This document shows, piece by piece, positions 1-10,113 of a stretch of 12,163 nt of DNA. The notes beneath the pieces were generated by a model that had not been told where the DNA came from, did no database searches, and saw only the letters and a list, made by a program, of their open reading frames with translations. Both the position numbers and the translations under genes were made by a program. Each line of letters begins with the position of its first letter. Positions within the stretch are counted from its first letter, which is position 1. The stretch is taken from NCBI GenBank assembly GCA_021029095.1, contig JAJOHG010000600.1:1-12163 (forward strand), written 5' to 3'. Source of the stretch: Phellopilus nigrolimitatus. Lineage: Eukaryota; Basidiomycota; Agaricomycetes; Hymenochaetales; Hymenochaetaceae.

Positions 1-1452
1 TCGTTTCTGCGGTTTCGTGCGGGTTTAAACCTCTAGTAGTCATTAAAACTATACAGGGTATTGCTTAAGGTGTTTTGAGATCGAGTTTGAACTCAATATC
101 ACCCAGAGCTTCTGATGGTACTACTTATATTTGGCGAGCCAGTATTCGGGTTGTCGGATCGGGTACACCTAGTTGTTGGTGTGCTGTATGTACCTACGCA
201 CTCCCGAGTCAGCCAGCGCTAAATTTACTCTGTTCATCAATTTGTTCCCCGAGCCATTTTTTCATTCAAGCGCACTTAGCGAGGTCTCTATCGCCCTCAA
301 ACCTTCATTAGACAAGATTATCTCCGAGCCGCGCGGAACACAGCACTTCGATCCTTCGTGAAAGTTTCGCGTGACCTTGTAAAATGTTCTGAACGAGGTT
401 CAGGTGCGGGTACCTAGGCGCTGGCTGATTCTGTAATGCTATTTGACTTTTCGGTGCTGCATTTTTTTCGCTATTACTGTCCGTGATTGTTTCTGTGAGT
501 AACTTTTAGTTGTTCTCTTCGGAGAGTGCCGGAGCAGAAAATATAGTCTGGAAAACGTTTTTTGTTTGTGTAGTTTGCATGGACCGACAAAACCCTTTCG
601 ACAGAGAATAGACTCCAATACAACGGGAGGTAGATATTATGAACGACGACAGAAAAAAATCCTTATTTCATGCTCCTTATAAACTCCTACGTTCCTCTTG
701 TCTCTGCTTAACCGATAACATCTTTGAAGCAGTTTGTGTTCGTAGTCGGCGCGTCCTTTTTATACCCGCTACAAGAGCTTTAAAGAAGATGCATGAATGA
801 TCGCCCTTAGAGATCGACGACTTTCCAGAAAAAGAACTCATACCGACAAGTGGCCGTGCAAATGCAATTTTAGCGACTTTTGTTCTATTTTCTGCTGCCT
901 TCAAATAGCTTCAAGCAAGTCTCAAGTTCTATGATACATGTCGAGGTTGTATGTTTTACGCGACAATTACACATTTCTCGTCAGAATCCGCTCACTGAAC
1001 CATCTTCGCGGCTCATCGGGCCACTCACAGCATCCGGTCCGAGTCATTGCCTGTTCTCTTGCTTGTGACTCGCGTCAGACTACTTGCACATCGGAAGAAT
1101 TTCCAGGAGAGCACTCGCGGGTTAGGGGTTACTTTTCGCGTACCTTTCCCGCTCACCGGCTACCATATACATACTGAACGGAAACTAAGGCCAATGTCTT
1201 CGGTGCTCATCATGCTGCGAACCAAGCACCACCTATGATTTCGCCGGGGCTTACAAGCACCGCTTGAAACCTTTTACCTACTCGCTTGCACGTTGCTGCT
1301 ATCAATTTTAAATCTCTTTTACACGGTCTTCAATGTCGTGCCCAACCAATAGAGTAATACTACGCATATTTGCATACAGATTATCCTCTCTTCCTTGCGA
1401 AATTCCTGCCCTGCCTCAACTCGGTCGGAGCTCTTCTCAGCTGCCGCCCGGC
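1..1452. other. Left flank without a supportable gene
   Basis: No gene model holds here. Open frames on both strands are short, carry no recognised motif and do not splice into longer products. From about 690 rightwards the sequence is homologous to 3106-3763, with many substitutions and frame-breaking indels, so it reads as duplicated non-coding DNA downstream of the gene at 1453-1955. Between about 640 and 700 there is weak similarity to the 3062-3110 region, which may mean that an older duplicated unit once lay further left. On the minus strand, roughly 170-410 is open except for one TGA. That could be a decayed exon, but it may be chance. Confidence 0.4.
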
Positions 1453-1955
1453 TTACTTAGGCTTGGGCTTAGGCTTTCCAGACCCGGTCGTCGTAGTTAG
1501 CTTGCCTTTCGGTCGGAACTTGACTGTACTTTTCTCAAGCGAGAATTGAGTACGATTGTTTTCAAATGGCGAAGGAAGTGCTCGTACTGATTTTCCTCTG
1601 CATGCGGACGCGCCTCTTCACCCTTCCCAGAATCTCCAAGATCCCTTATAGACATATCAAATGAATGCATTTTCAAGCACGCCCGCGCTTAGCGAGGTAA
1701 GATCCACTCACGGATGATGTTTTTGGTCGGGGGATTCATCGGACGAAGCTCTTTTCCCCTCGTCTGTCGCTGTGTCCGCTGAAGTAGCAGCGGCTTCCGA
1801 TGAGAACCTGAGAATCATAATCAGCAACGCATAGCCTCATCTAACCGACTCGTGGCAGGGCTGATAATTATATGATCAGTGCATTTTTGGACTAACGTCT
1901 CTTCCCTGGCTTCGCCCGGCTGTGGGTAAGATTCAGATGCCAGAGTGTCTGGCAT
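1453..1955 (-). CDS. Small acidic protein with basic AT-hook-like C-terminus, type I copy 1
   Basis: Unrecognised family; spliced by eye. Exons on the minus strand: 1955-1897, 1807-1712, 1644-1588, 1528-1453, giving 95 aa. Introns of 89, 67 and 59 nt are all phase 2. Residues 1-70 are hydrophilic and rich in Glu, Asp, Ser, Thr and Ala, with no signal peptide or membrane segment. The last exon gives HTVKFRPKGKL (71-81), then a Thr-rich run and a Lys-Pro tail ending at TAA. The paralogue at 3764-4266 has the same exon layout and an identical stretch TSADTATDEGKR. Differences in the last exon are mostly silent or conservative in this frame, which supports coding. The first donor (GTTAGT) and third donor (GTACGA) are weaker than in the paralogue, so splicing may be impaired. 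The basic core resembles an AT-hook, so nucleic-acid binding is an inference only. Confidence 0.68.
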
Positions 1956-2280
1956 GATATGTCTCCGTTGCTACTATCGAGCGATGAGGGTATGTGAGAG
2001 ATGGATGTTAGATAGCAAGACGATAGGCGCTCGTATCCGGAATCACTTTATCCTGCTAATTCGGTCCGGCGCTAACACATGTACATAATCAACCCCTCTC
2101 TGACACAAGCCCCGGCACATCGATTAACTCGCAAAGTGAATTTAAAGAGCATGTAAAAAGACCAATAACAGATACTGAAAACAACAGTGAATAAACAGTA
2201 AATACAATGCCAATGATTTAATCCACGTAATAACGTAATTAAAGGAACGCCTTTATAGTGTTCAAGATGTTTTGAAAAAG
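1956..2280. other. Upstream region of the type I copy 1 gene
   Basis: Non-coding stretch between the 3' remnant of a type II gene (from 2281) and the gene starting at 1955 on the minus strand. It holds the conserved promoter block listed separately. The remainder, about 2111-2280, is AT-rich and aligns only loosely with 4431-4590 in unit B. An open minus-strand frame here (2314 down to 2072) is only partly homologous to coding sequence, at its first residues, and is not a gene. Confidence 0.5.
1999..2110 (-). promoter_or_regulatory. Conserved promoter block of type I gene, copy 1
   Basis: This 112-bp stretch upstream of the ATG at 1955 is unusually well kept between the two duplicated units (matches 4315-4430). 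It includes 28 identical bases at 2046-2073 and an identical 17-base stretch near 2087-2103. Read on the minus strand it contains AGGATAAAG, a weak TATA-like element, 91 nt before the start codon. Its high conservation against drifting surroundings suggests a shared regulatory role. Confidence 0.5.
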
Positions 2281-2338
2281 TACATCTTCCTTTTTGAGAA
2301 TGGCTACGTCTCATGATATCGCATCTTTCACCTATTTA

Positions 2339-2446
2339 CAGCGCTTTTACAAAACCTTGTCAGTGCGCGCAAAAAAAAAAAAAAAGTTGCGGCCCTCAGG
2401 GTGTGCCAAATAAGGCATTATTGCCTATTTGGGCGAAGTCGCGTTG
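2339..2446 (+). repeat. Left terminal inverted repeat of the element
   Basis: Outer 32 bases (2339-2370) are identical to the reverse complement of 2881-2912. A 15-A run follows, then GTTGCGGCC, then a subterminal near-palindrome (AAATAAGGCA / TTGCCTATTT), then GCGAAGTCGCGT. Relative to the right arm it carries 10 extra bases after GGCC. Confidence 0.8.
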
Positions 2447-2810
2447 TGATTGCCTCGTCCATTGTGCAGTTTGTTGTGTTGTGCAGCACACTGTCCGTGT
2501 CGAGCAGCTCGTAGATGCAGAACTGGAGTCAGTGGAATTATGCAGAGGCACCCGCACAATGTACAGCCAAAATTTGACATCAACTTCGCCGGTTTGCAAG
2601 CTACACCGCCGTCGTCTCTGGGAGACTTTAGCCTGCAGGAGCTCATGCAGGTACAATATTACTATCTTAGTTACTATCGAGAAGCCAAAATGCCAGCAAG
2701 TGCATGAGGGTAGTATTGGCTTGTCTTGTATAGCCAAAGAGCACGGACATTCAATTCCTCACTGATCTTTCGATAGGGCATGCATTGTACAACGACGACG
2801 AAAAAAAAAA

Positions 2811-2912
2811 AACCACGACGCGACTTCGCTCAAATAGGCAATAATGCCTTATTTGGCGGCCGCAACTTTTTTTTTTTTTTGCGCGCACTGACAAGGTTTT
2901 GTAAAAGCGCTG
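2811..2912 (-). repeat. Right terminal inverted repeat of the element
   Basis: Reverse-complement partner of the left repeat. It has the same order of blocks (GCGACTTCGC, the subterminal near-palindrome, GGCCGCAAC, a 14-T run, 32 terminal bases), but lacks the 10-base insert of the left arm. A second A run (about 2801-2812) lies just inside. Confidence 0.8.
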
Positions 2913-3114
2913 TAATCCCTCGCGAGAAATCCGCCTCCGTCACGAAACTTTGTGAGCGAACAAGCGATACGAAACAGAAGTAGAGAAGTAATAACGAAGG
3001 CACTTACGAATCTGTAAACGAATCTGTATTTCTATGTGATTCCACTTTTTCACTTGGGGTGTTCCTTTCCCTCTTATTCACTATGTTGTTATAAGCGAAG
3101 TCAATGCTTGTTTG

Positions 3115-3763
3115 CTAAAGCTTGGGATCTTGAAGAAGCTGTAATTGGAAGATACGGCCTGAATGATCGTCCTTTTCCGAAGAATTGATTCCGAGTGGCC
3201 GTGCAGATTTAAATTTAGCAATTTTGCCTTATTTCTGCCGCGGCTCAAGCAGAAGCATGTTCAGAGCGCCACCATGGTTATCGACTAACATTAGTTCTTT
3301 ACTCTATGCTGCCCTTTCTCCCCCTTCTTTTTGCCTTAATTGCTATTATCTGAGTCCACAGAACGACTGGAACTCCATAGTATGGCATGCCTGTCGTGCT
3401 GAGCACAAAACTCAAACGCGTGCGAATCTTCCTTGTGGCTCGCGTAGACTAATTGTATATGCGGGAAGGCCAGACTCAGAAAGAAAAGTCAACATGTTGA
3501 CGCTGTGTGTAACTTTCACTTCTTGCTCCATACATCAAACCTTGGAAAGTTTGCGGTAGATTTTCCAGCGACATTGACAAACGAATGGAATTCTCCAGTC
3601 ATTTGCTCAGTACGCATTTTAAAGGTTACTACATCAATCCATTCAAGCTCTGATGCCTCTTACAGTCGTCAATATCGTACCCAACGGAGTACGTACAGCA
3701 TAGCGTACAGACCATTATTCCTTTCTTCTGCCACATCTCGATTGGTATTATTTTCAGGCAGCG
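3115..3763. other. Non-coding DNA downstream of type I copy 2
   Basis: Homologous to about 700-1440 in unit A but strongly diverged. Open frames present here (for example 3185-3559 on the plus strand) are not preserved in the other copy because of indels, which argues against coding. No RNA gene or regulatory motif is recognised. Confidence 0.5.
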
Positions 3764-4266
3764 CTACTTTTTCCCACCACTCCCAGTCGTTGAACTCAGC
3801 TTGCCTCTCGGACGGAACTTGAGTGTGCTTATATATATTTCAAGTGAGAGATTGAGTACAATGGTGTCAAAAGCAAAGGAGAAGCACGTACTGCGTATCC
3901 TCAGTATGGGGATGTGCCTCTTCGCTCTTTCCGGAACTTTCCGGCTCCCTTGTCGCATGCACATATTTAAGCATGCGGCTAAGCAAGGCGATGGTGAGAG
4001 CACTCACGGATGAAGTTTCTGCTCGTCGGACTCAGGTGATCTTTTCCCCTCGTCTGTCGCTGTGTCCGCCGAGGTAGTGGCGACTTCCGCCGGATGACTG
4101 ACAATCAATCAGCAACGCATAGCCTCATCGAACCGACTCGGGGCAGGACAAAGCTCGCGCTGATCGCCATATGATCAGTACATTTCTGGACTCACGTTTC
4201 TTCTCTGGCTTCGTCCGGCTGTGTGGATGCTAGTGTATACACGTCCTTGAAAGGTGTGGCCGGCAT
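3764..4266 (-). CDS. Small acidic protein with basic AT-hook-like C-terminus, type I copy 2
   Basis: Best-supported member of the unrecognised family. Exons on the minus strand: 4266-4196, 4097-4008, 3948-3892, 3827-3764, giving 93 aa. Introns of 98, 59 and 64 nt are all phase 2, with donors GTGAGT, GTGAGT and GTACGT and acceptors TCAG, CAAG and TAAG. Residues 1-72 are hydrophilic and acidic (EAREET, TSADTATDEGKR at 32-43, ESDEQK). The last exon gives HTLKFRPRGKL (73-83), then a Ser/Thr/Gly run and two Lys before TAG. A second possible acceptor 12 nt into exon 3 would remove four residues in frame. There is no signal peptide or membrane span. Function is unknown; the basic core suggests DNA or RNA contact, as inference. 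The upstream block at 4315-4430 is its likely promoter. Confidence 0.72.
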
Positions 4267-4594
4267 GATAGATGCGTCTTCCGTTGGCGCTGGCAAGCGA
4301 TGAAGATATGTAGTAGATGGATGTTAGATAGCAAGGCGACAGGCGCTTGTACATATCTGAAATCGCTTTATCCTGCTAATTCGGTCCGGCGCTTACGCAT
4401 ATGCATAATCAACCCCTCTCTGATACGAGCAAACACACTTTAACGACTCGTAAGTTGAAATCATGAAAATGAGCATAAAGACGCAAAACCTGCTTTTAAA
4501 TAATGTAGGGATAGTACAATGTCGATACATTAGATAAATTAATTCGCGCGAGAAAGTTATTAAAAGAATGCCCTCAGCAAGTGAGCCTGATACG
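4267..4594. other. Intergenic region between type II and type I genes
   Basis: Holds the conserved promoter block (4315-4430) for the gene starting at 4266 on the minus strand. The rest, about 4431-4594, is AT-rich 3' flank of the type II gene. No further gene is supported; the minus-strand frame at 4393-4632 includes bases of the type II last exon but in the wrong frame. Confidence 0.5.
4315..4430 (-). promoter_or_regulatory. Conserved promoter block of type I gene, copy 2
   Basis: Counterpart of 1999-2110. It shares 28 identical bases (4366-4393), including the TATA-like AGGATAAAG on the minus strand 100 nt before the ATG at 4266, and the downstream AATCAACCCCTCTCTGA. No similar block was seen before the genes at 5139 or 6070. 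Confidence 0.5.
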
Positions 4595-5139
4595 TTAAAA
4601 AATAGTGCATCCTCCTCCTTGATGGTGACCATGTTTGCCGGTACCGCTACTCTTGTTTATTCGACCCCTCGGGAGAAATTTACCTCTGTCATATAATGTT
4701 GTGAACAAACAAGCGTTATGAACGAGAATAAATGGAACTTACAAATTTGTTCTTTTAACAGGTGGTCTTATCTTCTCATTTGGGTCATCCTCTTTTACTT
4801 GTCTGTGAACGACGATTCAGTATTTTTATAAGCAGTGGCGACTTCAACGTACGGAGGATTTGCGTCAGACCCACGCTCATCCGGCTTTTCAACGGCAGCA
4901 GCGCCATCAGCTATTTTTACGACATGGTTGGCAGGTAGCGAGTTTCCAGCCGACCTATAATGAACGCAGGAAGTAAGGCGCAGTTAATCGGGTCGCTCCT
5001 ACGCAAAAGCCGCCCCAGTGCAGATTACTCACCCATTCTCCTGTGCATCCTGGGGAGTGTTTGCTGCTGGCGTGTTTTCAGCGGCGGTCGCAGCTGCGGT
5101 AGGATCTCCGCGCGAGACGGCAGACTCGAAGTGCGACAT
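4595..5139 (-). CDS. Small Ala-rich protein with AT-hook-like core and C-terminal CTIF, type II
   Basis: Spliced minus-strand model. Exons 5139-5033, 4954-4853, 4802-4743 and 4685-4595 give 119 aa. Introns of 78, 50 and 57 nt are all phase 2, with donors GTGAGT, GTACGT and GTAAGT and acceptors TATAG, CACAG and GACAG. Residues 1-36 are Ala/Thr-rich, and about 37-80 are acidic with scattered Lys. Residues 90-99 (LGKFLPRGRI) match the basic core of the neighbouring genes. The tail is Ser/Gly/His-rich and ends G-G-G-C-T-I-F, which has the form of a CaaX prenylation box. Unspliced reading through intron 2 would stop at 4797, giving an 88-residue product instead. The duplicated remnant at 2281-3105 retains exon 3, its donor and the Cys-containing end, which supports the model. 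Function is not recognised. Confidence 0.68.
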
Positions 5140-5726
5140 TTTCAGGCGAATAGCTCACACCGGAAGCTCAGGGATGACAGTGGGTAGGTGACGGTGGGTG
5201 ATATCGATATCGCTAAGTAGGGGAAAATGAGTCGGGCGGCCTTCTATAATCGAGCCTCGCGCGAACGGCGACATAGCATCAGAGATGCCGGCGAAAGCAG
5301 TGACGACGCCCAAGTGGCTCCATCATCGCTTTGTTCAACAACCGTTGATCTTGTGTAGTTCGTCAATGAGAAGAGATTCCGTTCAGTACGTTTGCGACGA
5401 CATGCGGTCTGCCTGTGCAATAAGTCATACTGGCAGACTTCCAGAATTTCAGAGACGCTCGCTGATGACTTTCTCACGCTATAATCATTGTCAGGTCAAA
5501 ATAGATGAACACAAGGACACAGCAAATTCACGACATAGCATTGAGAAGGTTAGGAAAAACAGGGAAAAGTAACAGTCAGGAATAGTAAAAACTGGTGTAG
5601 GTAAAGCGGGTATTAAAATGTGGGCACAGCATAGAATGGGGTTCTAGAGGGACATGCTCGAGCACATCAGTTTGGCTTCACAGGAGCGCGGACGTCCATC
5701 GCACTTCCTAACGATTGATTCCCTCA
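5140..5726. other. Intergenic region between type II gene and the 76-aa gene
   Basis: Upstream sequence of the gene starting at 5139 (minus) and downstream flank of the gene ending at 5727 (minus). No clear TATA box was seen; CGATTATAGAAGG near 5240-5252 on the minus strand is a weak candidate. Overlapping open frames at 5244-5477 (minus) and 5285-5572 (plus) carry no family motif and no convincing splice signals. I see no gene here. Confidence 0.5.
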
Positions 5727-6070
5727 TCAAGACGTTGGCTTGCCGGGCGGAGGCGGGGGCGGCTTTGTGATGGTTGGCAAGCTTGGCCTTCCCCTAGGAG
5801 TCCACTTGAAAGGCGGAATGGCCCTGCCGGTATATTCAGCACAGGTTCGACGTTCAAAGGAATATAAAATCACTCAGGAACTTCAGCAGGGCTGTCAGAT
5901 GGAGACCTTTCATCGTCACTCTTGTCGCTGCGATACGATTGTGATAAGCAGTGATCGCCTAGAGGGAGGTCGCAGGAATGGGGAGCATACCTCGAGTTGC
6001 GTGAAGTTTTGTCTCGCGTATCGTCGCTGGAGACCGACTCAGAACTTTTGTTGACGATCTCTGGCTTCAT
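5727..6070 (-). CDS. Small Ser/Asp-rich protein with P-R-G-R-P AT-hook core and Pro-rich tail
   Basis: Fourth family member. Exons on the minus strand: 6070-5991, 5927-5874, 5823-5727, giving 76 aa. Introns of 63 and 50 nt are both phase 2. Residues 1-45 are very hydrophilic and rich in Ser, Asp, Lys and Glu. The last exon gives FKWTPRGRPSLP (50-61), which aligns with the KF-x-P-R-G-K core of the neighbours and contains the canonical AT-hook core P-R-G-R-P. A six-proline run and GKPTS follow, then TGA. Intron 1 is 63 nt with no stop, so retention would add 21 residues in frame, including two Cys. The second donor (GTGATT) is weak. A TATA box and a CT-rich leader precede the ATG, so it has its own promoter. 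DNA binding through the minor groove is inferred from the motif alone. Confidence 0.68.
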
Positions 6071-7394: not shown

Positions 7395-9386
7395 ATGGAT
7401 CATATATCTCTAAAAATCGCTCCGGAAGACGATTCTAATGCTCTCTCGAAACTGAAGCCAATCACGCCTGCTCATTCGACACGATATTCGAAGGGGGGAA
7501 GGTAAGAATACTGGTCTTTTCTCATATATTCTCAAACTCAAGTTGCTCTCTAGCATAAATCTGACTAATAAGCGCATTCCTCCTGGCTTTTTCTCGCGAC
7601 AGTTCGACCCAGAGTGAGTGGTTTCAAACGAAAACGGAATTCGGGACGTATTCACCGACGAGTGCTCTCCCTCAGACCTGAATACTTTTCTCCTGGATGG
7701 TCCGAGCATGTTCAGCCCGAGGGCCAGCGATATTTTTATCACAGCAAAGGCCACATCGTGACCGAAGCGAATATTTATGATGAAGAGCAGTTCAGGTGCA
7801 TCTCGTGCTCGATGGAGGCCGTGGATAAACTCGCCCATACGCAAAATATTAAGATCTCGAATTCGGTCGAAATTTTCTTGCAGCTTGATGAGGATGATCA
7901 GTGCACATGTGGCTACTATCTGGTTGAACATGCATCGCACACAGTCTTCTGGTTGCACGAAACGACCTCGGAGGACATCGGTGTTCCTGACTCTGCCTCC
8001 TTCTCCCAGCTCCGTAGGCGCCTCTAATATGTCCGCGGATAAAGGATTTAATGTTGACTCCGGACTTTCAGGACTAGCGTCAAATGAACATTACTGGACA
8101 CACGTAGAATACTTCCCAACACATATGTCCGGCGTCAAGACATCGTGTATTCGAGATCTCATAGGCATCTTGACTCATGCGAGAGCAGGTAAGTGCACGT
8201 AACGGTCCCTAATGAAAGGCGATTTCTCAAATGGGTTCTGTTAGATCACTTGACTTCTTTGGTCGGAACGTTCCCGTACAATGCGGCACAGTGCAAAGAA
8301 TACGTCGACTTGCTCCGGGATCATATGTCTAGCCCGTCTGACCTACTGACAGACCCTTATGTTATTTGCGTCGTTGGTGAGCGCTGTGTTGTTCATAATA
8401 CCCGCTTTCGTGTATTCATCACACTCATACAGCTCGTCTAATGTCACAAGTTGGTACGTTACTTACTCTCAGGAAACCAAAATAGCGCTCTGATCCTATT
8501 TTTTGCCATCAGCGCGGCACAGGTTCCTCAATTACTACGGAGAGACAAACGCGCGGCTCTCACGAGACCAACACATCGTTGATATTTACCCGAAGAAAAC
8601 TCCTCGGCTGTTCAAATTAGTCTCGAAGATTCTGCTCTTCGACCTGCCGCACCGTTTCGTCACAGAACTTGAGACCCTTTGGGTCGACAACCTTGTTTAC
8701 GCAGAGCCATGGAAGCACTTTATGATCCGCTGCCTCGCTGACTGGAAAGAATCAGGGGTTTGGACCTTAGCTTTAATAATGTACGGTTAAGCCTTTCTTA
8801 TTTTGGTTGCTAAACTGATCTTCTTGCTCGCAGTATTCACGCCCTCTTCTATGCTATCTCCAATGGATCGCGTAACATCGCTATCGCTTCCATGACACTT
8901 TCGATAGTTGGTTTCATTGCAAGCCTGATACTAGCCAACTATCACCGCATTCCCCTGAACTTCGAAACTGCTGAAGCCGTCAGTGCCTATTCCCGATCAA
9001 TCTCCATTCTTGATATTGACGGTTTGATGCGATCTTAGGCTGATTTCCTCGAGAGGAACTTCCACCCTACATACGGTTTCACCCTGCTGTCGCTCGTGTA
9101 CAGCATCCCCAAAGCGCTTCTCTTCTGGTCTGCAGGGACGTTACTGCTCCAAATGGGCTTTGCAGTGTTCCAAATCACAGATGTTTACATGGCCGGGGCG
9201 CTTATCAGCCTCACCGTTGTCGCCGTCGGCGCTTTCGCCGCCGTTCTGCGCCGCAATGCCAGTGTCAAATATGACACGGAGGAAGACAAGCAAGAAACGA
9301 TGTCGACATGGAGGCGCTTCTTTCATCCATCTTCTCGTAGTAAAGGTGATTTGGAAGGAAATGATGAAGGTCTCAGCGCTTCGTAG
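7395..9386 (+). CDS. WW-domain-like multi-pass membrane protein
   Basis: Complete eight-exon model: 7395-7501, 7676-8013, 8072-8188, 8245-8376, 8433-8453, 8513-8780, 8834-8978, 9039-9386 (491 aa). It matches a large agaricomycete family of uncharacterised proteins. These have an N-terminal partial WW module (here GWSEHVQPEGQRYFYH, about 43-58), a middle with VFWLHE, YWTHVEYFP, ARLMSQVARHRFLNYYG and WVDNLVYAEPWKHF, and C-terminal membrane spans (about 343-362, 403-420, 427-446, perhaps also 320-336). Exon 5 is a 21-nt microexon supplying RLMSQV, which the family expects at that point. Introns are 53-60 nt, except the first (174 nt), which may hide an unresolved small exon. The start codon has A at -3. 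The last codons and stop lie in a long inverted repeat. Its function and cellular membrane are unknown. Confidence 0.85.
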
Positions 9387-9439
9387 AAGCCCTTTATGGA
9401 GCGCTGAGATCTTCCTTTCCAAATCACCTTTACTATGAG
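9335..9439. repeat. Long imperfect inverted repeat over the stop codon
   Basis: Left arm 9335-9380 and right arm 9400-9439 are reverse complements apart from about six extra bases in the left arm and a few mismatches; the loop is 19 nt. The left arm encodes the last residues (SKGDLEGNDEGLSA) of the membrane protein, and the right arm is 3' flank. The transcript could fold into a stable hairpin around its own stop codon. Confidence 0.85.
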
Positions 9440-10113
9440 GAAATGGATGTATCAAGTCAATCTTTAGTGCACACACGGTCATCCAATGTGACAACCACGT
9501 TGGACAGGCGGAACACGTCCCAGCTCATTAGTAAAGCAAAACTTGCGTTTCAAGTTTGTTTTGGAGGATTTCACAGATAGATGTACTTGTACTTTTATGT
9601 TCAGACTTAAAGTAAGAAGTAAGAAAGTATGTTGTACATGCTCCATAATGAATGAGCCTTCAGGAATTTCTTTCTTCCGAGCACTCCTGGCTTCACAGCG
9701 GATGCATTTATGTATGCATTTCCGACACTGCAATGTGGGCGCTAGCATCGCATCCGTTAGCGAAACCGTGCCTTGCTACCCACGCTTCATACCCGCAATC
9801 ACCAACGCTGTGCTTCAACCATCCTGCTTTTTGGCAATCATCTGCTCGTGGAGTCTAGCGCACTGATTGCTTTGCATGGAACTTGAAGCCGATCTTTTTA
9901 ATCATGGCTCGGGAGCATGAAGCGCCGACGCTCGTAGCCGTTCAGGCAACAGTCAGCGCTTGGACAGCGCTATAAGTATGATGATGGTCAGGTCCACCCG
10001 AACGCACCGACGTTCACTACTCAGCTCTCGAAGACAGATCGCAGCTCTTGGAAGGCCCATAAGCTCCTGTCTATCCTGTTGCAACCACTCCCGCCTCTCA
10101 AACTCCGTTTGCA
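9440..10113. other. Intergenic region between membrane protein and metacaspase genes
   Basis: 3' flank of the upstream gene and promoter or leader of the metacaspase. A weak TATA-like CTATAAG occurs near 9969. Open frames here (for example 9543-9866 plus, 9479-9748 minus) lack recognisable motifs. A hydrophilic frame at about 9942-10060 (YDDGQVHPNAP) runs close to the metacaspase start but in another frame; it could be leader sequence or an unresolved exon. Confidence 0.45.

What the first reader, a model, noticed from the sequence alone, without database searches (positions are those of the whole stretch)
1453..6070. Cluster of four small intron-rich genes forming an unrecognised family
Four minus-strand models (95, 93, 119 and 76 aa) hidden among short exons share an acidic low-complexity body and a last exon with K-[FW]-x-P-[RK]-G-[RK]. 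Frame is conserved across all splices between the two type I copies, including identical TSADTATDEGKR and mostly silent or conservative changes in the last exon. I know no named family with this layout. Small charged proteins with a DNA-contact-like tail in a local array could be chromatin-associated factors or a lineage-specific effector-like group; that is inference.
Basis: partly seen in the sequence, partly recalled or inferred. Interest (0 to 1): 0.88.

Follow-up and report, generated by a model that had tools for sequence, protein, structure and literature searches.

The report
Tandem array of tiny two-charge proteins
A fungus, likely of the wood-rotting family Hymenochaetaceae, carries a row of four predicted small genes, each encoding an acidic stretch followed by a short basic tail, that matched no family in the libraries searched here; one ends in a box that would let it be anchored to membranes by a lipid.

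Summary
All four minus-strand models rebuild exactly (95, 93, 119, 76 aa); all 11 introns are GT-AG and in codon phase 2; in this window the tail motif occurs only there. The window is the whole of contig C557; a second, probably allelic copy on C57 keeps all four frames and all 11 introns. The two type I copies differ in a coding pattern (codon positions 18/21/37; Ka 0.26, Ks 0.81). New here: gene 3 ends in CTIF, a CaaX-type prenylation box; a fifth, broken copy is split by a transposon-like insert absent from C57; bodies are acidic (net -5 to -12), tails basic (+5 to +8, no D/E). No homologue was found in Pfam, in two searches of a protein collection that holds Hymenochaetaceae proteins, or elsewhere in this genome above chance. 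Mating pheromones, secreted effectors and AT-hooks fit poorly. Best reading: a young, lineage-restricted family of probably disordered proteins whose tail docks on acidic surfaces, likely a membrane for the CaaX form. The family is well supported, the mechanism weakly. There is no transcript evidence, and exon constraint between haplotypes is weak.

The parts
1453..1955 (-). gene A (type I, 95 aa): exons 1955-1897, 1807-1712, 1644-1588, 1528-1453
   Evidence: C57 copy 541094-540592 intact, 8 exon substitutions, no exon indel
3764..4266 (-). gene B (type I, 93 aa): exons 4266-4196, 4097-4008, 3948-3892, 3827-3764
   Evidence: C57 copy 546160-545656 intact, 13 exon substitutions, no exon indel
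4595..5139 (-). gene C (type II, 119 aa): exons 5139-5033, 4954-4853, 4802-4743, 4685-4595
   Evidence: one substitution (V to G) in the C57 copy
4598..4609 (-). last four codons of gene C, Cys-Thr-Ile-Phe, a CaaX-type box directly before the stop
   Evidence: identical in C57
5727..6070 (-). gene D (type III, 76 aa): exons 6070-5991, 5927-5874, 5823-5727
   Evidence: exons identical in C57
2279..3020 (-). broken type II copy (psi-C), split by the insert at 2339-2912; donor-like site at 3012-2999, exon-4-like pieces at 2935-2916 and 2302-2279
   Evidence: the C57 counterpart aligns to gene C at score 167 against a maximum of 108 in 300 shuffles; the acceptor position reads CGG and a TAA follows in frame (read by eye)
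2339..2912 (.). MITE-like insert, inverted terminal repeats, flanked by TA, absent from the C57 copy
1974..2076 (-). predicted 5' (leader) intron of gene A: GTTAGC donor, CTAAC branch site, TAG acceptor
   Evidence: signals kept in A and B in both copies of the locus
4290..4396 (-). predicted 5' (leader) intron of gene B: GTAAGC donor, CTAAC branch site, CAG acceptor

Best explanation
The array is four predicted multi-exon genes, plus one broken copy, of an unnamed family of small and probably disordered proteins, each an acidic body joined to a basic K[FW]xP[RK]G[RK] tail that likely docks the protein on negatively charged surfaces, a membrane in the case of the copy predicted to be prenylated at its CTIF end. 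Shown directly: frames and GT-AG introns intact in both copies of the locus, phase-2 introns throughout, charge split between body and tail, the CTIF codons, a repeated type II plus type I unit. Inferred: that the genes are transcribed and spliced; that symmetric phase-2 exons let copies lose or swap exons without frame damage (gene D has one exon fewer); that gene C is prenylated and its basic tail adds to membrane binding, as in the C-terminal regions of Ras and Rho proteins; that type I and III proteins, lacking the Cys, stay soluble or nuclear and bind by the tail alone. The likely gain is divergence in cell location after duplication of one binding module.
For: Models and phases. The C57 copy keeps all 4 frames and all 11 GT-AG introns, no indel in any of 15 exons. 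A against B: Ka 0.26, Ks 0.81; codon-position differences 18/21/37, third-position excess p = 0.004; with an alignment made on DNA alone 11/19/28, p = 0.013. Body net charge -12, -12, -5, -5; tail +8, +6, +5, +5 with no D or E in any of the 4 tails. Motif rarity. The broken type II copy keeps Cys-Thr at the place of the box. Phase-2 symmetric exons are a reported signature of exon shuffling in young gene families (Tetrahymena LRR genes, PMC6564038, passages). Prenylated, polybasic, disordered C-termini sort lipids in Ras and Rho proteins (PMC10622456, start of abstract in the listing).
Against: No transcript data. No homologue outside this locus. Between the two copies of the locus the exons of A and B are not clearly constrained: Ka/Ks 0.024/0.045 for A and 0.043/0.065 for B, and B has 13 changes in 282 exon bases against 5 in 221 intron bases. 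Between A and B intron 1 is more alike (88.5%) than any exon (68-77%), and exon 1 aligns only with gaps of 7 and 5 bases. A branch-site-like word was found in 5 of the 11 introns only. The CaaX box is in one intact gene of four; the broken copy reads on past its Cys-Thr. Disorder was judged from composition only; no structure was predicted. Gene D's kinship rests on a 7-residue motif and intron phase.
Confidence: 0.4

Rival explanations
1. Nuclear factors: the basic tail contacts DNA or chromatin in the manner of an AT-hook, the acidic body tunes it.
For: Acid body and basic tail; gene D has PRGRP, as in the consensus TPKRPRGRPKK quoted in PMC11354804 (passages).
Against: GRP core in 1 of 4 genes (A and B have PKGKL/PRGKL, C has PRGRI); no AT-hook model listed by Pfam at E up to 10; gene C ends in CTIF.
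Confidence: 0.2
2. Not genes: chance frames in duplicated, decaying intergenic DNA.
For: No transcripts, no homologues; a decaying copy lies within the array; intron 1 more conserved than exons and gaps in exon 1 that are not multiples of three; weak constraint between haplotypes; branch-site-like word in 5 of 11 introns.
Against: Third-position excess between A and B, all 11 introns in phase 2, all 11 GT-AG pairs kept in the C57 copy with no exon indel, net exon length differences all multiples of three, motif absent from 1 Mb of simulated DNA.
Confidence: 0.13
3. Precursors of mating-pheromone-like lipopeptides outside the mating locus.
For: Gene C ends in a CaaX-type box; pheromones with Thr in that box occur in Trichaptum, same order (PMC8970355, passages).
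Against: No D or E in the last 28 residues of C, so no acidic maturation site near the Cys; 357 coding bases in four exons; the 18 STE3 matches lie on C13, C322, C80, C38 and C533, none on C57 or C557; A, B and D lack the Cys; Pfam Pheromone model not hit here.
Confidence: 0.09
4. The conserved thing is RNA or regulatory DNA (leader intron and intron 1), the proteins being incidental.
For: Parts of the 5' region and intron 1 are the most alike stretches of A and B.
Against: No Rfam match in the array at E up to 1; codon-position signal in the exons; genes C and D do not share these stretches in the repeat list.
Confidence: 0.07

Closest known systems
C-terminal membrane-targeting regions of Ras and Rho proteins (polybasic stretch plus CaaX)
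   Same: Gene C ends with a basic, D/E-free 28-residue tail and CTIF
   Different: No GTPase domain or any Pfam domain in C; genes A, B and D have the basic tail without the Cys
AT-hook / HMGA small chromatin proteins
   Same: Small, charged, with separate acidic and basic segments; gene D has PRGRP
   Different: Three of four lack the GRP core; no Pfam match
Basidiomycete mating pheromone precursors and ascomycete h-type precursors
   Same: Short protein with C-terminal CaaX-type box in gene C
   Different: No acidic maturation site near the Cys, no repeated CaaX-like motif as in HPP1 (PMC3068285, passages), not near STE3
Tetrahymena young LRR genes with phase-2 symmetric exons
   Same: Internal exons a multiple of three long, all introns phase 2, tandem
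   Different: Other proteins, no LRR, five copies rather than thousands of genes (PMC6564038, passages)

Membership tests
Basidiomycete mating pheromone precursor | C-terminal CaaX box | tested here: met
   In gene C only, CTIF before the stop; not in A, B, D
Basidiomycete mating pheromone precursor | acidic (E/D) maturation site about 10-11 residues before the Cys | tested here: not met
   no D or E in the last 28 residues of C; criterion from PMC8970355 passages
Basidiomycete mating pheromone precursor | lies next to STE3 receptor genes | tested here: not met
   18 STE3 matches, all on five other contigs
Basidiomycete mating pheromone precursor | length of 100-200 bp (filter used in PMC8970355) | tested here: not met
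   gene C has 357 coding bases without the stop (filter seen in passages)
Basidiomycete mating pheromone precursor | match to Pfam Pheromone PF08015 | tested here: not met
   not listed for the four proteins; 4 sub-cut-off matches in the genome, none on C57 or C557
AT-hook protein | GRP core flanked by basic residues | tested here: not met
   in gene D only, 1 of 4; criterion from PMC11354804 passages
Secreted small effector | hydrophobic N-terminal signal | tested here: not met
   highest 19-residue mean hydropathy anywhere -0.53, -0.56, +0.48, -0.41; no signal-peptide predictor was available
Ras/Rho small GTPase | G domain | tested here: not met
   no such Pfam family listed
Prenylated protein | lipid on the C-terminal Cys | not testable with these tools
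   sequence motif only

The most novel reading that the evidence does not exclude
A lineage-restricted fungal protein family, built by tandem duplication of genes with symmetric phase-2 exons, that sends one and the same acid-basic binding module to different places in the cell: lipid-anchored to membranes (type II, CTIF) and free (types I and III).
Probability: 0.3. Interest if true: 0.6.

Novelty: new variant of a known kind. Interest (0 to 1): 0.42.

Why it matters
Tiny, intron-rich genes are easily missed by gene finders. If these are real, they show how a fungus makes new disordered proteins by duplication and exon loss, with two haplotypes, a dying copy and a recent transposon-like insertion caught in the same 6 kb. 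The CaaX-type end gives one copy a directly testable location, and the type I copies are natural controls without it.

Tried and rejected
Mating-type pheromone array: rejected as the main reading after the STE3 and Pheromone searches. Further family members elsewhere in the genome: searches with the proteins of B, C and D found only this locus in its two copies (one other row, C112 at E 0.91, was judged chance); gene A was not used as a protein query, and such searches see short exons one by one. The motif pattern gave 18 other hits, near the control level of 16. The closest look-alike, KFRPKGKPDSTSTIVLVV on C614/C627, was read by eye and left out because no matching acidic exons were seen upstream and the number of hits is at chance. 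Non-coding RNA: Rfam at E up to 1 gave 5 hits, all below their gathering scores and all on a hairpin at 9327-9446. Upstream start codon in the conserved 5' block: in B it would extend the protein in frame (MHMPPTEDASI), in A it would give a 16-residue frame that stops, so the block was treated as leader. Seven paper searches listed no paper that I recognised as describing this family; of the listed papers I saw titles and abstract starts, and passages of four. Limits: the protein collection was searched with the four-row alignment and with gene C alone; the third search went to the neighbouring metacaspase as a check of coverage; A, B and D were not searched there singly. Of the family libraries only Pfam was used for the four proteins.
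Full report
What was checked. The four gene models were rebuilt from the minus strand. They have exactly the lengths claimed: A 95 aa, B 93 aa, C 119 aa, D 76 aa. The 11 introns are 50-98 bases long, all begin GT and end AG, and all 11 fall after the second base of a codon. Internal exons are therefore multiples of three (96, 57; 90, 57; 102, 60; 54). Each last exon carries K[FW]xP[RK]G[RK]. The acceptor of A intron 3 was chosen because it keeps the frame; an AG 5 bases upstream would break it, and that upstream AG is missing in the C57 copy.

Where it lies. The window is the whole of contig C557 of a 56.4 Mb, 635-contig assembly. A long contig, C57, carries a second copy of the region: window 1-2220 matches C57 539131-541360 at 94.7% and window 2913-12163 matches C57 544776-554054 at 98.4%. 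I take these as two haplotypes; a recent large duplication is not excluded. The five best protein matches of the neighbouring metacaspase are Sanghuangporus, Coniferiporia and Fomitiporia proteins at 57-61% identity, so the fungus is likely a member of the Hymenochaetaceae.

Evidence that the proteins are real. In the C57 copy all four frames and all 11 GT-AG introns are kept, with no indel in any of 15 exons; the only intron length change is 2 bases in B intron 2. A against B: net exon lengths differ by 12, 6, 0 and 12, introns by 9, 8 and 5. Nei-Gojobori distances are Ka 0.26 and Ks 0.81, codon-position differences 18, 21 and 37 of 76 (third-position excess p = 0.004). A DNA-only alignment of the same exons gives 11, 19 and 28 of 58 (p = 0.013).

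Evidence that weighs the other way. Changes between haplotypes show little constraint: A 5 replacement and 3 silent, B 9 and 4, C 1 and 0, D none. B has 13 changes in 282 exon bases against 5 in 221 intron bases; A has 8 in 288 against 10 in 215. Intron 1 is 88.5% alike between A and B, more than any exon (68-77%), and exon 1 aligns with gaps of 7 and 5 bases that only in sum make a multiple of three. A branch-site-like word was found in 5 of 11 introns.

Is it more than chance? The protein motif occurs 4 times in the six frames of the window, all in the claimed last exons, 4 times in 50 kb of C57, the same four, and 0 times in 20 simulated 50-kb sequences. Genome-wide a looser DNA pattern gives 26 hits; 8 are the array in its two copies and the other 18 compare with 16 for the reversed control. 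Over a 15-residue core built from A and B, C scores 44.5, above the best of 20 simulated 50-kb sequences (35.0); D scores 20.5, which is within chance, though its 7-residue motif score is reached by 0 of 5000 shuffles of the D protein. A, B and C therefore form a family; D is a likely, more distant member.

(1) Gene C ends Cys-Thr-Ile-Phe-stop in both haplotypes, a CaaX-type prenylation box. (2) Between B and A lies a broken type II copy. Its C57 counterpart aligns to gene C at score 167 against at most 108 in 300 shuffles; the acceptor position reads CGG and an in-frame TAA follows (read by eye), while Cys-Thr is still present at the place of the box, without a stop behind it. The array was thus probably built from type II plus type I units. 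(3) In the window haplotype this copy is split by a 574-base insert with inverted ends, flanked by TA, that is absent from C57. The insert has at least 12 further copies over its whole or nearly whole length at 93-95% identity and 3 more at 82-84% in the assembly (whose counts are lower bounds). (4) Both type I genes have a predicted leader intron with GTTAGC/GTAAGC donor and a CTAAC branch site 34 bases before the acceptor in the window copies, the signals being kept in both haplotypes. (5) All bodies are acidic (pI 4.4-4.8) and all tails basic (pI 11.1-12.0), with no D or E in any tail.

What it is not, as far as tested. Pfam at E up to 10 lists one weak sub-threshold hit, for B (DUF3664, E 0.73), and none for A, C and D. 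The protein collection gave no homologue with the alignment of all four (1055 candidates, none at E up to 0.1) or with gene C (36 candidates, none at E up to 1), although it holds proteins of related genera. That is moderate evidence only, since the search needs shared five-residue words and small intron-rich genes are often not annotated. Mating pheromone precursors: the 18 STE3 matches lie on C13, C322, C80, C38 and C533, the Pheromone model gives 4 sub-cut-off matches on other contigs, and the 28-residue tail of C has no acidic residue, while pheromones in the same order mature at an acidic site near the Cys (PMC8970355, passages). AT-hook: GRP core in D alone (criterion: PMC11354804, passages). 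Secreted effectors: no hydrophobic stretch.

How it most likely works. Shown: the charge split, the shared tail motif, the CaaX-type end of C, phase-2 symmetry. Inferred: the basic tail docks on an acidic surface. For C, prenylation would place it on a membrane, the basic tail adding affinity as in Ras and Rho C-termini; A, B and D would stay free. That CVIF-type ends are prenylated in known Ras-family proteins is recalled, not looked up. Phase-2 symmetric exons would let copies lose or swap exons without loss of frame, a pattern reported for young LRR genes of Tetrahymena (PMC6564038, passages); D, with one exon fewer, fits. I put the reality of the A-B-C family at about 0.8, D's membership at about 0.6, and the docking mechanism at about 0.35.

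Surroundings. In the C57 copy a stretch of about 3.3 kb lies between gene A and the broken copy that the window lacks; at least 2.7 kb of it is an inverted 93%-identical copy of C57 520001-522735 (the edge of what was fetched) and holds a fungal protein kinase frame (PF17667). To the right in the window lie a gene with a sub-cut-off WW-domain match and a metacaspase gene. The locus looks young and mobile, in keeping with a lineage-restricted family.

Noticed in passing
window 2339-2912: MITE-like element with long inverted ends and TA flanks, present in one haplotype only, with at least 12 relatives over nearly its whole length at 93-95% identity in the assembly: probably recently mobile.
   Followed up: partly
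G000:C57:541363-544062 (L006): Inverted 93% copy of C57 520001-522735 with a fungal protein kinase frame (PF17667; the name FunK1 is recalled), present in the array region of the other haplotype only.
   Followed up: partly
window 1808-1896 and 4098-4195: Intron 1 of the type I genes is more alike between copies (88.5%) than their exons; gene conversion or a regulatory element could explain it.
   Followed up: partly
window 9317-9456: Hairpin-forming inverted repeat (45-base arms, 82%) near the 3' end of the WW-domain-like gene; five sub-threshold microRNA and snoRNA models hit it.
   Followed up: no
L064 and L065, position 1501 (C614 and C627): KFRPKGKPDSTSTIVLVV before a stop, the best look-alike of the tail outside the array; hit numbers are at chance level.
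   Followed up: partly
window 849-880 and 3194-3225; C57 539989-540038: A stretch downstream of gene A repeats a stretch downstream of gene B (81% over 32 bases in the window, 80% over 50 in C57), hinting at a longer duplication unit.
   Followed up: no
window, plus strand, from 10114: Metacaspase gene (PF00656, E 6e-16) with closest matches in Sanghuangporus, Coniferiporia and Fomitiporia.
   Followed up: partly
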